Positions 50,423 to 54,684 of a stretch of DNA of 64,000 bases are shown here, piece by piece. Source of the stretch: Pseudomonas asiatica. Lineage in GTDB: Bacteria > Pseudomonadota > Gammaproteobacteria > Pseudomonadales > Pseudomonadaceae. The notes under the pieces were generated by a model. It was not told the DNA's origin. It did not search any database and saw only the letters and a program-made list of their open reading frames with translations. A program made the position numbers and the translations under genes. Each line of letters starts with the position of its first letter. The first letter of the stretch is position 1. Where the stretch lies: NCBI RefSeq assembly GCF_009932335.1, contig NZ_BLJF01000001.1, positions 1,674,001-1,738,000 of the forward strand, read 5' to 3'.

Positions 50423-51391
50423 ATGAAAATTACAAAGGCTCTGCTGACCACCACACTATCTTTCGGGCTGCTGGCGGCCGCTGGTGCCAGCCAGGCGGCC
50501 GGCTGGTGCGAGTCTGGCAAACCGGTGAAATTCGCCGGATTGAACTGGGAAAGCGGGATGCTGCTCACGGACGTGATGCAGTTCGTGCTGAAAAATGGTT
50601 ATGGCTGTGAAACCGACAGCCTGCCGGGTAACTCCATCTCCATGGAAAACGCCCTGAGCAGCAACGACATTCAGGTGTTTGCCGAAGAGTGGGTAGGGCG
50701 CAGCGAGGTCTGGAACAAGGCGGCGGCCGCCGGCAAGGTTGTTGGCGTCGGCGCGCCGGTCGTTGGCGCAGTCGAAGGCTGGTATGTGCCGCGTTACGTG
50801 ATCGAAGGCGACCCCAAGCGCAAACTCGAAGCCAAGGCACCGAACCTCAAGACCATCGCCGATCTTGGGCAATACGCCCAGGTATTCAAAGACCCGGAAG
50901 AACCGGACAAGGGGCGCTTCTACAATTGCCCGGCCGGCTGGACCTGCGAGCTGGACAACAGCGAGATGCTCAAGCACTACGGCCTGGAAAGCAGCTACAC
51001 CAACTTCCGCCCGGGCACCGGCCCGGCACTGGATGCCGCCGTGCTGTCGAGCTACAAGCGTGGCGAGCCGATCCTGTTCTACTACTGGTCGCCGACGCCG
51101 CTGATGGGCCTGGTCGACCTGGTCAAGCTGGACGAGAAGCCAGGCGTGGATAAATCCCTGACCATCAAGGTGGGCCTGTCGAAGGCCTTCCACGAGCAGG
51201 CGCCGGAACTGGTGGCAGTGCTGGAAAAGGTCAATCTGCCGATCGACCTGCTGAACCAGAACCTGGCGCGCATGAGCAAAGATCGCATCGAGTCGCCGGA
51301 ACTGGCCAAGTTGTTCCTCAAGGAGCACCCCGAGGTCTGGCACAGCTGGGTCAGCGAAGACGCAGCCAAAAAGGTGGACGCGGCACTCTGA
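50423..51391 (+). CDS. Periplasmic binding protein of a quaternary-amine-type ABC importer
   Basis: A 322-residue OpuAC/ProX-family binding protein. The signal peptide MKITKALLTTTLSFGLLAAA...SQAA is followed by GWCESGKPVKFAGLNWESGM. Aromatic residues that could form a betaine-binding cage are abundant (EEWVGRSEVW, GWYVPRYVIE, FYYWSPTPLMGL). It resembles both ProX and the HutX histidine-type proteins. The start at 50423 gives the signal peptide. It is the first gene of an operon with permease, ATPase and a lyase homologue. Its ligand is inferred to be a histidine-derived betaine. Confidence 0.88.
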   Translation: MKITKALLTTTLSFGLLAAAGASQAAGWCESGKPVKFAGLNWESGMLLTDVMQFVLKNGYGCETDSLPGNSISMENALSSNDIQVFAEEWVGRSEVWNKAAAAGKVVGVGAPVVGAVEGWYVPRYVIEGDPKRKLEAKAPNLKTIADLGQYAQVFKDPEEPDKGRFYNCPAGWTCELDNSEMLKHYGLESSYTNFRPGTGPALDAAVLSSYKRGEPILFYYWSPTPLMGLVDLVKLDEKPGVDKSLTIKVGLSKAFHEQAPELVAVLEKVNLPIDLLNQNLARMSKDRIESPELAKLFLKEHPEVWHSWVSEDAAKKVDAAL

Positions 51392-51466
51392 GCGTATGGG
51401 CTTGTCCGGCTCCTGCCGGACAAGGCACGCGACAGTCCGTTTCATGCACTTGCTCGAGAGAATTCC

Positions 51467-52318
51467 ATGTTTCCCAAGAACTTCACGTTTTCCATTGCCG
51501 ACTGGGTCAATGGCTGGGTCGATGCGCTTGTAACCAACTACGGTGACGTGTTCCGGCACATCTCCGACACCCTGCTGTGGGCCATCGTCAACCTCGAAGG
51601 CCTGCTGCGCGCAGTACCCTGGTGGCTGATGCTGGCCATTGTTGCTGGTATCGCCTGGCACGCCACCCGCAAAGTCGTGACCACTGCCGTGATCGTCGGC
51701 TTGCTCTTTTTGGTCGGCGCGGTCGGCCTCTGGGACAAGCTGATGCAGACCCTGGCGCTGATGCTGGTCGCAACGCTGATATCGGTCCTGGTCGGCATTC
51801 CGCTGGGTGTGCTGTCGGCGCGCAACGATCGCCTTCGGGCGGTGTTGATGCCGCTGCTCGACATCATGCAGACCATGCCCAGCTTCGTGTACCTGATACC
51901 GGTGCTGATGCTGTTCGGCCTGGGCAAGGTGCCGGCGATCTTTGCCACCGTCATCTATGCCGCGCCGCCGCTGATTCGCCTGACCGACCTGGGCATTCGC
52001 CAGGTGGATGGCGAGGTCATGGAGGCGATCAACGCTTTCGGTGCCAATCGCATGCAACAACTGTTCGGTGTGCAGCTGCCACTGGCGTTGCCGAGCATCA
52101 TGGCCGGTATCAACCAGACCACCATGATGGCCCTGTCGATGGTGGTCATCGCCTCGATGATCGGTGCCCGCGGCCTGGGTGAAGACGTCCTGGTCGGCAT
52201 CCAGACCCTGAATGTGGGCCGCGGCCTCGAAGCGGGCCTGGCCATCGTGATTCTGGCGGTCGTGATCGACCGTATTACCCAGGCCTATGGCCGACCACGG
52301 CATGGGGTGGGCAAATGA
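51467..52318 (+). CDS. ABC transporter permease (ProW/HutW type)
   Basis: A 283-residue permease beginning MFPKNFTFSIADWVNGWVDA. About six hydrophobic helices and the ABC-coupling EAA region near VMEAINAFGANRMQQLFGVQLPLAL mark it as a ProW-type BPD transporter subunit. The last codons overlap the ATPase start by ATGA. It works with the binding protein upstream and the ATPase downstream to import a quaternary amine or amino acid. Confidence 0.92.
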   Translation: MFPKNFTFSIADWVNGWVDALVTNYGDVFRHISDTLLWAIVNLEGLLRAVPWWLMLAIVAGIAWHATRKVVTTAVIVGLLFLVGAVGLWDKLMQTLALMLVATLISVLVGIPLGVLSARNDRLRAVLMPLLDIMQTMPSFVYLIPVLMLFGLGKVPAIFATVIYAAPPLIRLTDLGIRQVDGEVMEAINAFGANRMQQLFGVQLPLALPSIMAGINQTTMMALSMVVIASMIGARGLGEDVLVGIQTLNVGRGLEAGLAIVILAVVIDRITQAYGRPRHGVGK

Positions 52319-53148: not shown

Positions 53149-53160
53149 GGAACCGGGTAT

Positions 53161-54684
53161 ATGTCGTTTGCCGAAAGAATCATCATCGCCGACGCGCCAG
53201 TGCGTTGGCAGGACGTGGTGGCAGTGGCCCGGCATGGCGCGAAGCTTGAGCTGGCCCCATCGGCCTGGGCCCGGATCGAGAACGCCCAGGCGATTGTCCA
53301 GCGCATCGTTTCCAGCGGTGACCGCGCCTATGGCGTCAACACCGGGCTTGGCGCCTTGTGCAATGTCTCGTTGCAGGATGAACAACTCAGCCAGCTGTCG
53401 CACAACACCTTGCTCAGCCATGCCTGTGGCGTGGGTACGGCGCTGTCGGACGAACAGACCCGGGCGATCATGTGCGCGGCGATCATCAATTTCTGCCAGG
53501 GCCGTTCCGGCCTGCAGCGCAAGGTGGTCGAGGCGCTGCTGACCTTGCTCAACCAGCACATCACGCCGCAGGTGCCGAAGCAGGGGTCGGTGGGGTACCT
53601 GACCCACATGGCGCATATCAGCATCACCTTGCTGGGCGTCGGCCAGGTCAGCTATCGCGGCCAGATCATGCCGGCGCAGCAGGCCTTGGCCGAGGTCGGC
53701 CTGGCGCCGGTCAAACTGGGTGCCAAGGATGGCCTGTGCCTGGTCAACGGTACCCCTTGCATGACCGGCCTTAGCTGCCTGTCCCTGGACGACGCCACTC
53801 GGTTGAGCCAATGGGCGGATGTCATCAGTGCCATGAGCTTCGAGGCCCTGCGCGGCCAGCTCGATGCCTTCGACCCTGAAATCATCGCGATGAAACCGCA
53901 CCCCGGCATGCAGCGCGTGGGCAGTAACCTGCGACGCCTGCTCGACGGCAGCGAAATCATTGCCAGCAGCCAAGGCATACGCACCCAGGACGCCTTGAGC
54001 ATTCGCTCGATTCCGCAGGTTCATGGCGCCGCCCGCGATCAGCTAGACCACGCTGCGCGGCAGATCGAAACCGAACTCAACTCCACCACGGACAACCCGA
54101 TGCTGCTGGGTACGCCCGAGTCGTATCGGGTGGTTTCCCAGGCGAATCCGCACGGCCAGTCGGTGGCCATGGCGGCTGACTTGCTGGCCATCGCGGTGGC
54201 CGAGATCGGGGCGATTGCCGAGCGTCGTCTCGATCGCCTGATCAACCCGTTGGTCAGCGGATTGCCGGCTTTCCTGGTCAGCCAGCCGGGAGTTAATTCG
54301 GGGATGATGATTGTCCAGTACGTGGCTGCTTCACTGTGTGCAGAAAACCGTCAGCTGGCACAACCGGCAGTCGTCGACAACTACGTCACTTCCGGCCTGC
54401 AGGAGGACCATCTGAGCATGGGCACCAATGCCGGGTTGAAGCTGCACCGCGCCCTGGAGAACTGCACGCAGATCCTCGCCATCGAATACCTGCTGGCGGC
54501 CCAGGCATTCGAGTTCCTCAAGGAGCAGCGCTTTGGCGCGGGTACCAGCGTTGCCTGGCGGTTGTTGCGCGAACGGGTCCCGGCGTATGCCCAGGACCGT
54601 TGGCTGGCCCCGGATATCGCCAGCAGCGCATCGATCCTGAAGGATCCGGGCCTGCTTGGCGCTGCATTCCCCGAGCTGTTATGA
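53161..54684 (+). CDS. Ammonia-lyase-superfamily protein without the MIO tripeptide, candidate ergothionase-like lyase
   Basis: A 507-residue HAL/PAL-fold protein. The catalytic-loop Tyr is kept in RAYGVNTGLGAL (about residues 57-68), and IPQVHGAARDQL, STTDNPML and GTNAGLKLHRALENC are recognisable. The MIO-forming site normally GSVGASGDLAPLAH reads G142-SVG-YLTHMAH: the Ala-Ser-Gly is absent by a clean three-codon deletion. It therefore cannot deaminate histidine by the MIO route. Ergothionase, a relative without MIO, eliminates trimethylamine from ergothioneine. The betaine-type importer 12 bases upstream fits a trimethylated histidine substrate. Annotating it as hutH would be wrong. Confidence 0.85.
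   Translation: MSFAERIIIADAPVRWQDVVAVARHGAKLELAPSAWARIENAQAIVQRIVSSGDRAYGVNTGLGALCNVSLQDEQLSQLSHNTLLSHACGVGTALSDEQTRAIMCAAIINFCQGRSGLQRKVVEALLTLLNQHITPQVPKQGSVGYLTHMAHISITLLGVGQVSYRGQIMPAQQALAEVGLAPVKLGAKDGLCLVNGTPCMTGLSCLSLDDATRLSQWADVISAMSFEALRGQLDAFDPEIIAMKPHPGMQRVGSNLRRLLDGSEIIASSQGIRTQDALSIRSIPQVHGAARDQLDHAARQIETELNSTTDNPMLLGTPESYRVVSQANPHGQSVAMAADLLAIAVAEIGAIAERRLDRLINPLVSGLPAFLVSQPGVNSGMMIVQYVAASLCAENRQLAQPAVVDNYVTSGLQEDHLSMGTNAGLKLHRALENCTQILAIEYLLAAQAFEFLKEQRFGAGTSVAWRLLRERVPAYAQDRWLAPDIASSASILKDPGLLGAAFPELL

What the first reader, a model, noticed from the sequence alone, without database searches (positions are those of the whole stretch)
50423..54684. Betaine-type ABC importer coupled to a MIO-less ammonia-lyase: candidate ergothioneine (histidine-betaine) catabolic system
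The lyase at 53161 has the HAL/PAL fold, but the universal GSVGASGDLAPL site reads GSVG followed directly by YLTHMAH (residues 142-152). The Ala-Ser-Gly that cyclises to the MIO electrophile is missing by exactly three codons, while the flanks and the catalytic-loop Tyr remain. The gene is in frame, full length and well kept, so this is a change of chemistry and not decay. Ergothionase is a known relative that needs no MIO and expels trimethylamine from ergothioneine. A ProXWV-like importer, suited to quaternary amines, lies 12 bases upstream, and a divergent LysR sits in front. Together this predicts import of ergothioneine, hercynine or a similar trimethylated histidine, followed by elimination to a (thio)urocanate. 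An automatic annotation as histidine ammonia-lyase would miss it.
Basis: partly seen in the sequence, partly recalled or inferred. Interest (0 to 1): 0.88.

Follow-up and report, generated by a model that had tools for sequence, protein, structure and literature searches.

The report
Cofactor-less histidase cousin with betaine importer
A soil bacterium carries a look-alike of the enzyme that breaks down the amino acid histidine, but without its built-in catalytic group; it probably removes trimethylamine from methylated histidine instead, which would explain a puzzling extra 'histidase' seen in many Pseudomonas.

Summary
Observation confirmed. The lyase at 53161-54684 has the HAL fold but reads GSVG-YLTHMAH: the MIO-forming Ala-Ser-Gly is missing. 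This is a widespread family trait: 120 of 120 listed homologues share it, and 27 sampled 'GYLTH' lyases form one clade (100/99), apart from Treponema ergothionase (joint clade rejected, p-AU 2.1e-4).
In 69 of 80 fetched relatives the lyase lies beside hut (histidine-utilization) genes. Gene order matches the five-gene insertion described for P. [quoted passage not shown] The window holds the detached, LysR-linked form (11 of 80).
Best reading: a MIO-independent lyase that expels trimethylamine from an alpha-N-trimethylated histidine, most likely hercynine, giving urocanate for HutU. Ergothioneine itself is unlikely: the only HutU is ordinary urocanase, no thiohydantoin desulfurase reaches its cut-off, and five rhizobia holding both systems use another lyase for ergothioneine.
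Substrate and chemistry are inferred, not shown. New variant of a known kind.

The parts
49309..50223 (-). divergent LysR-family regulator gene (304 aa), presumed regulator of the operon
   Evidence: Pfam HTH_1 and LysR_substrate; travels with the operon in 11 of 80 loci; its control of the operon is inferred
50224..50422 (.). lysR-SBP intergenic region, presumed to hold promoter and LysR site
   Evidence: the lysR-proximal part (about 90 bases) is conserved across the window and 10 P. putida-group loci, the rest varies
50423..51391 (+). substrate-binding protein, OpuAC/ProX type (322 aa)
   Evidence: Pfam OpuAC 208.5 bits; nearest solved relative 7yle; five Trp shared with 7yle
51467..52318 (+). 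ABC permease, ProW/ChoW type (283 aa)
   Evidence: TIGR03416 293.5 bits, below its cut-off of 363
52315..53148 (+). ABC ATPase, ProV type (277 aa)
   Evidence: TIGR01186 372.3 bits, cut-off 326.6
53161..54684 (+). MIO-less HAL-like lyase (507 aa), 'GYLTH' clade; counterpart of hutH1 by gene order
53584..53616 (+). MIO site, residues 142-152 GSVGYLTHMAH, without Ala-Ser-Gly

Best explanation
The module imports an alpha-N-trimethylated histidine (best candidate hercynine, i.e. histidine betaine) and turns it into urocanate. The OpuA/ProX-type transporter binds the quaternary ammonium (inferred). The lyase keeps the residues with which HAL holds histidine (Y57, H87, N196, Q276, R282, E415: shown by alignment) but has neither MIO nor Tyr280 (shown). 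Trimethylamine is a good leaving group, so acid/base 1,2-elimination would do without the MIO electrophile (inferred by analogy with ergothionase). The products would be trimethylamine and urocanate; urocanate enters the ordinary hut pathway, encoded elsewhere in this genome. In most Pseudomonas loci read here the module is part of the hut operon, where it corresponds by gene order to hutXWV-hutH1; in the P. putida group it is a detached cassette beside its own lysR.
For: MIO and Tyr280 lost together with the histidine-binding residues kept in 19 of 19 GYLTH rows. Purifying selection. Lyase beside hut genes in 69 of 80 loci. In a phylum-wide draw, HutU in 23 of 23 GYLTH genomes against 183 of 397 overall, and within 20 kb of the lyase in 19 of 23. 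A HutH-type histidase is present as well in 22 of 23, so the GYLTH lyase is an addition, not a replacement. SBW25 hutH1 reported not required on histidine (PMC8871633 section 5.2). Betaine-type importer with five conserved Trp. In Agrobacterium a GYLTH lyase and ProXWV stand in a cluster with ErtD and an S-methyl-thiourocanate-hydratase-like gene, where a trimethylamine-releasing first step is expected. SolA-type N-methyl oxidase gene beside two rhizobial GYLTH lyases.
Against: No assay; no structure with ligand; the substrate is inferred. The same review says HutXWV takes part in histidine uptake. Several GYLTH lyases come with a polar-amino-acid-type importer instead. The five Trp are also in a second SBP of this genome that has no lyase match beside it in the search. 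The fate of trimethylamine in this genome was not examined. The SBW25 sequence itself was not seen; identity with hutH1 rests on gene order. The Tyr280 rule has one exception, L148.
Confidence: 0.58

Rival explanations
1. One reading: an ergothionase, turning ergothioneine into thiourocanate and trimethylamine.
For: Same fold, no MIO, Leu in place of Tyr280 as in Treponema ergothionase; betaine-type importer; a GYLTH lyase stands in an ergothioneine-related cluster in Agrobacterium.
Against: Joint clade rejected; Lys of ergothionase is Tyr here and its Ser at HAL N195 is Asn here; one HutU, of the urocanase kind; desulfurase 37.4 against 440 bits; in five genomes with both, the ergothioneine cluster has its own distant lyase on another contig.
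Confidence: 0.1
2. A lyase for another N-substituted histidine (mono- or dimethylhistidine, an opine of histidine, or a ring-modified histidine betaine), still giving urocanate or a derivative.
For: Importer type varies between lineages; SolA-type oxidase next to two rhizobial members; Agrobacterium member beside S-methyl-thiourocanate-type genes.
Against: Non-quaternary amines are poorer leaving groups without MIO (chemical argument); the window's importer is of the betaine type.
Confidence: 0.17
3. A catalytically inactive relative that regulates HutH or serves as a subunit of mixed tetramers.
For: MIO and Tyr280 missing; HutH-type gene beside it in 66 of 69 hut-linked loci.
Against: Most active-site residues kept under strong selection; in the window it is unlinked from hutH and comes with its own importer and regulator gene; present without a HutH-type enzyme in G255.
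Confidence: 0.08
4. A true histidine ammonia-lyase that works without MIO.
For: Scores above the HutH cut-offs; the hut clusters of G255 and of the Aureimonas plasmid stretch have no MIO-bearing HutH in the stretch read.
Against: MIO and Tyr280 both absent; SBW25 hutH1 reported not required on histidine; a HutH-type histidase is kept in 22 of 23 genomes.
Confidence: 0.06

Closest known systems
hutXWV-hutH1 module of Pseudomonas fluorescens SBW25 (five-gene insertion between hutU and hutH)
   Same: Gene order in L152: hutU, cytosine-permease-like, SBP, permease, ATPase, GYLTH lyase, HutH, hutI, hutG; matches the description in PMC8871633
   Different: The window lacks the permease hutTu, is outside hut and stands beside lysR; SBW25 sequence not seen here
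Ergothionase of Treponema denticola (PDB 6s7j, 6s7q)
   Same: HAL fold, no MIO, Leu at position 280, Tyr53, His83, Gln277, Arg283 and Glu414 kept
   Different: Separate clade; its MIO site reads SSIGEGDIT, one residue shorter than HAL instead of three; Ser at N195; Lys at window Y387
Histidine ammonia-lyase HutH (P. putida, Thermoplasma)
   Same: Fold, highest sequence similarity among solved structures, histidine-binding residues
   Different: No Ala-Ser-Gly, no Tyr280, Phe329 is Pro
Ergothioneine and S-methyl-ergothioneine utilization clusters (NCBIfam ErtD, ErtE, thiourocanate hydratase, desulfurases)
   Same: A MIO-less lyase followed by a HutU-like step; Agrobacterium L011 uses a GYLTH lyase with ProXWV
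   Different: No such genes in the window's operon; in the genome the desulfurase does not reach its cut-off and HutU fits urocanase; ErtD and ErtE were not searched genome-wide
OpuA/ProXWV-type betaine importers
   Same: SBP, permease and ATPase families; five Trp shared with 7yle
   Different: Below the equivalog cut-offs for ProX, ProW and the choline system; ligand unknown

Membership tests
MIO-dependent histidine ammonia-lyase (HutH) | Ala-Ser-Gly that forms MIO | tested here: not met
   GSVG-Y---LTHMAH
MIO-dependent histidine ammonia-lyase (HutH) | Tyr280 | tested here: not met
   Leu in the window; Tyr in 14 of 14 MIO-bearing rows
MIO-dependent histidine ammonia-lyase (HutH) | Tyr53, His83, Asn195, Gln277, Arg283, Glu414 | tested here: met
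Ergothionase (Treponema type) | Falls in the ergothionase group of the tree | tested here: not met
   (p-AU 2.1e-4; long branches present)
Ergothionase (Treponema type) | The four published catalytic residues | tested here: inconclusive
   paper not held; one Lys of 6s7j is Tyr here, the conserved Glu is present. That this Lys and Glu are among the four is recalled
Ergothionase (Treponema type) | Downstream thiourocanate pathway in the genome | tested here: not met
   single HutU of urocanase type; desulfurase 37.4 of 440 bits
Ergothionase (Treponema type) | Trimethylamine release from ergothioneine | not testable with these tools
   needs an enzyme assay
SBW25-type hutXWV-hutH1 module | Importer genes followed by the lyase, homologous to the module inside Pseudomonas hut operons | tested here: met
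   64 of 69 hut-linked loci show SBP, permease, ATPase and lyase homologues in this order
SBW25-type hutXWV-hutH1 module | Location between hutU and hutH | tested here: not met
   window on C1, hutU and hutH on C3
OpuA/ProXWV betaine importers | OpuAC binding protein with aromatic cage residues | tested here: met
   Pfam OpuAC; five Trp aligned with 7yle; that these form the cage is recalled
Histidine-betaine trimethylamine-lyase (proposed) | Release of trimethylamine and urocanate from hercynine | not testable with these tools
   needs an enzyme assay

The most novel reading that the evidence does not exclude
Pseudomonads and several other proteobacteria have a hercynine branch of the hut pathway: 'hutH1' is not a histidase but a separately evolved, MIO-independent histidine-betaine trimethylamine-lyase, with hutXWV as its importer; in the P. 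putida group the branch has left hut as a cassette beside its own lysR. MIO has been lost in at least two separate lineages of the HAL fold, with Tyr280 to Leu in both, for substrates that carry their own good leaving group.
Probability: 0.48. Interest if true: 0.76.

Novelty: new variant of a known kind. Interest (0 to 1): 0.62.

Why it matters
[quoted passage not shown] The missing MIO gives a direct, cheap test of why. If the reading is right, hercynine, known from fungi, mycobacteria and cyanobacteria (passages of PMC9103826; abstract of PMC3826126 in the listing), becomes a nutrient that soil and plant bacteria funnel into histidine breakdown while releasing trimethylamine; many genes now named histidine ammonia-lyase would be misnamed; and the HAL fold would show repeated loss of a cofactor, tied to leaving-group chemistry.

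Tried and rejected

Papers: 10 of 10 searches used. No listing showed a paper on a MIO-less hutH1 or a hercynine lyase; the library lacks most subscription journals, so this says little about print as a whole. The 2019 ergothionase paper and the 2007 SBW25 hut paper are not held and were not seen. The NCBIfam models for Ert and S-methyl-thiourocanate enzymes imply that those pathways have been described; I did not see that work.
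Full report
What is there. The window lies in a 5.97 Mb genome; its lyase is 99% identical to those of P. pudica and P. inefficax, members of the P. 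putida group by my own knowledge. The unit reads lysR (49309-50223, minus strand), then SBP, permease, ATPase and lyase (50423-54684, plus strand). Family scans give a LysR regulator, OpuAC, a ProW/ChoW-type permease, ProV (above its cut-off) and Lyase_aromatic. The lyase passes the cut-offs of two histidine ammonia-lyase models. Neighbours are a GGDEF/EAL protein upstream and an SDR oxidoreductase and MscS-like protein downstream; I see no link to the operon.

The missing cofactor. Against HutH of the same genome the MIO tripeptide is missing: GSVG-Y---LTHMAH against GSVGASGDLAPLAHM. All 120 listed homologues of the first protein search (7376 found) have GSVGYLTHMAH. In a table of 39 HAL-like proteins that I chose from the loci and hit lists, 14 of 14 with Ala-Ser-Gly have Tyr280 (P. 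putida numbering) and 25 of 25 without it have Leu there, Treponema ergothionase included. The 19 GYLTH rows all keep Y53, H83, N195, Q277, R283 and E414 and share Y146, H149, W218 and N362 (window numbering). [quoted passage not shown]). One exception to the Tyr280 rule turned up later: L148 reads GSVGYLGPEGH but keeps QDTYSLR.

A clade of its own. A 52-row tree puts 27 GYLTH rows on one branch (100/99) and 16 MIO rows on another (100/99); 9 rows are in neither group. Treponema ergothionase groups with proteins of S. meliloti, Paracoccus and G210. Forcing GYLTH plus these four into one clade is rejected (p-AU 2.1e-4); long branches are present, so caution is due. The predicted structure (mean pLDDT 89.1, pTM 0.90, 56 sequences) matches HALs, tyrosine aminomutase and ergothionase alike.

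Where the module usually lives. In 69 of 80 the lyase lies beside hut genes; in 66 of these 69 a HutH-type gene is beside it; 64 of 69 show the three importer genes too (of the other five, two are cut by the contig end and three have a different or partial importer). The other 11 of 80 have lysR-SBP-permease-ATPase-lyase like the window. In 9 of these 11 the continuous DNA similarity stops within about 30 bases of the outer ends of lysR and the lyase; L017 and L018 share the upstream flank as well, and L017, L018 and L020 share shorter downstream stretches at other distances. The P. putida-group form thus looks like a self-contained cassette that has changed place. In L152 the order is HutD, HutU, cytosine-permease-like, SBP, permease, ATPase, lyase, HutH, HutI, HutG. 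[quoted passage not shown] The same section says that HutXWV takes part in histidine uptake, which speaks against a strictly betaine-specific importer.

Beyond Pseudomonas. Of 397 Pseudomonadota genomes drawn over the phylum, 24 have the GYLTH DNA pattern; one (G203) is false, leaving 23. HutU occurs in 183 of 397 and in all 23 (8e-9 by chance if genomes were independent, which they are not). HutU is within 20 kb of the lyase in 19 of 23; not in G000 (the window), G224, G108 and G382. A HutH-type relative (52% or more identity to this genome's HutH) is present in 22 of 23; its MIO motif was not read in each. The exception, G255, has a hut cluster with a GYLTH lyase, a second MIO-less lyase and a betaine-type binding protein; its other relative (GSVGASGDLTPLSYVA) is of a distant MIO-bearing type. 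Erwinia, Burkholderia and Rhizobium homologues come with a polar-amino-acid-type importer; those of Agrobacterium, S. chiapasense, G304 and G218 with a ProXWV type.

Ergothioneine or hercynine. NCBIfam has models for thiourocanate hydratase, thiohydantoin desulfurase, ErtD and ErtE. In G210 all four pass their cut-offs in one stretch that also holds a distant lyase (GSIGCADIG) and no GYLTH lyase. The desulfurase is above its cut-off in 5 of 24 genomes, all of one genus, each time on another contig than the GYLTH lyase and on the contig of a second HutU and a 26-27% lyase; the window's genome scores 37.4 against 440. Its single HutU fits urocanase best (1048.6 bits) and misses the thiourocanate hydratase cut-off (689.4 against 930). 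If the lyase's product is to be used by this pathway it must be urocanate, which points to hercynine rather than ergothioneine. Agrobacterium L011 is the informative exception: its GYLTH lyase (45% identical to the window's) lies beside ErtD (783.6 bits, cut-off 600), a hydratase fragment that fits the S-methyl-thiourocanate model best (829.2 bits; cut-off 880 for a full-length protein), a BisC/TorA-like reductase and a ProXWV importer. I read this as a sign that GYLTH lyases handle histidine betaines without a free thiol; that is inference.

The importer. The binding protein's nearest solved relative is 7yle, labelled a glycine betaine/proline-binding protein (97.8 bits). Five Trp (42, 90, 120, 173, 222) are shared with it and with the SBPs of seven other GYLTH operons, and also with a second SBP of this genome (53% identical), so they do not single out hercynine.

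Shown: loss of MIO and Tyr280, retained histidine-binding residues, one clade, selection, hut linkage, no desulfurase at cut-off. Inferred: trimethylamine elimination, hercynine as substrate, LysR control, importer ligand, identity with SBW25 hutH1 (by gene order).

Noticed in passing
L134 (G255:C26:48000-67000): A hut cluster with two MIO-less lyases (GYLTH type and a GSLGAADLAQ type), a betaine-type SBP and an ornithine-cyclodeaminase-like gene; no HutH-type histidase was found in this genome by the HutH search.
   Followed up: partly
L011 1-9482 (Agrobacterium tumefaciens pAtAF1_95): A GYLTH lyase with ProXWV, ErtD, an S-methyl-thiourocanate-hydratase-like fragment and a BisC/TorA-like reductase: looks like a utilization cluster for S-methyl-ergothioneine or a relative.
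   Followed up: partly
L013 3980-5512 (Klebsiella pneumoniae plasmid): A MIO-less HAL-like protein of another type (GSVGYLIATAH) among hutC, hutD, hutU, formimidoylglutamate deiminase and ABC transporter genes.
   Followed up: no
L016 756-8740 (Haloarcula halophila plasmid): A MIO-less HAL-like protein (GSADNACELAN) beside a HutU, an amidohydrolase and a glycine-betaine-type ABC transporter.
   Followed up: partly
L148 5458-7023 (G063): A further MIO-less variant, GSVGYLGPEGH, that keeps QDTYSLR (Tyr280), beside a polar-amino-acid-type importer.
   Followed up: no
L006 10478-11632 and L151 about 9729: A SolA-type N-methyl amino acid oxidase gene directly follows the GYLTH lyase in two rhizobial loci.
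   Followed up: no
L109 5723-13742 (Aureimonas sp. AU20 plasmid pAU20c): A hutC-F-H-I-G-U-D cluster in which the only hutH of the stretch read is a GYLTH lyase; the rest of the genome was not searched.
   Followed up: no
window 49308-54692: The lysR-to-lyase block has different flanking DNA in 9 of 11 P. putida-group loci; how it moved was not examined.
   Followed up: partly
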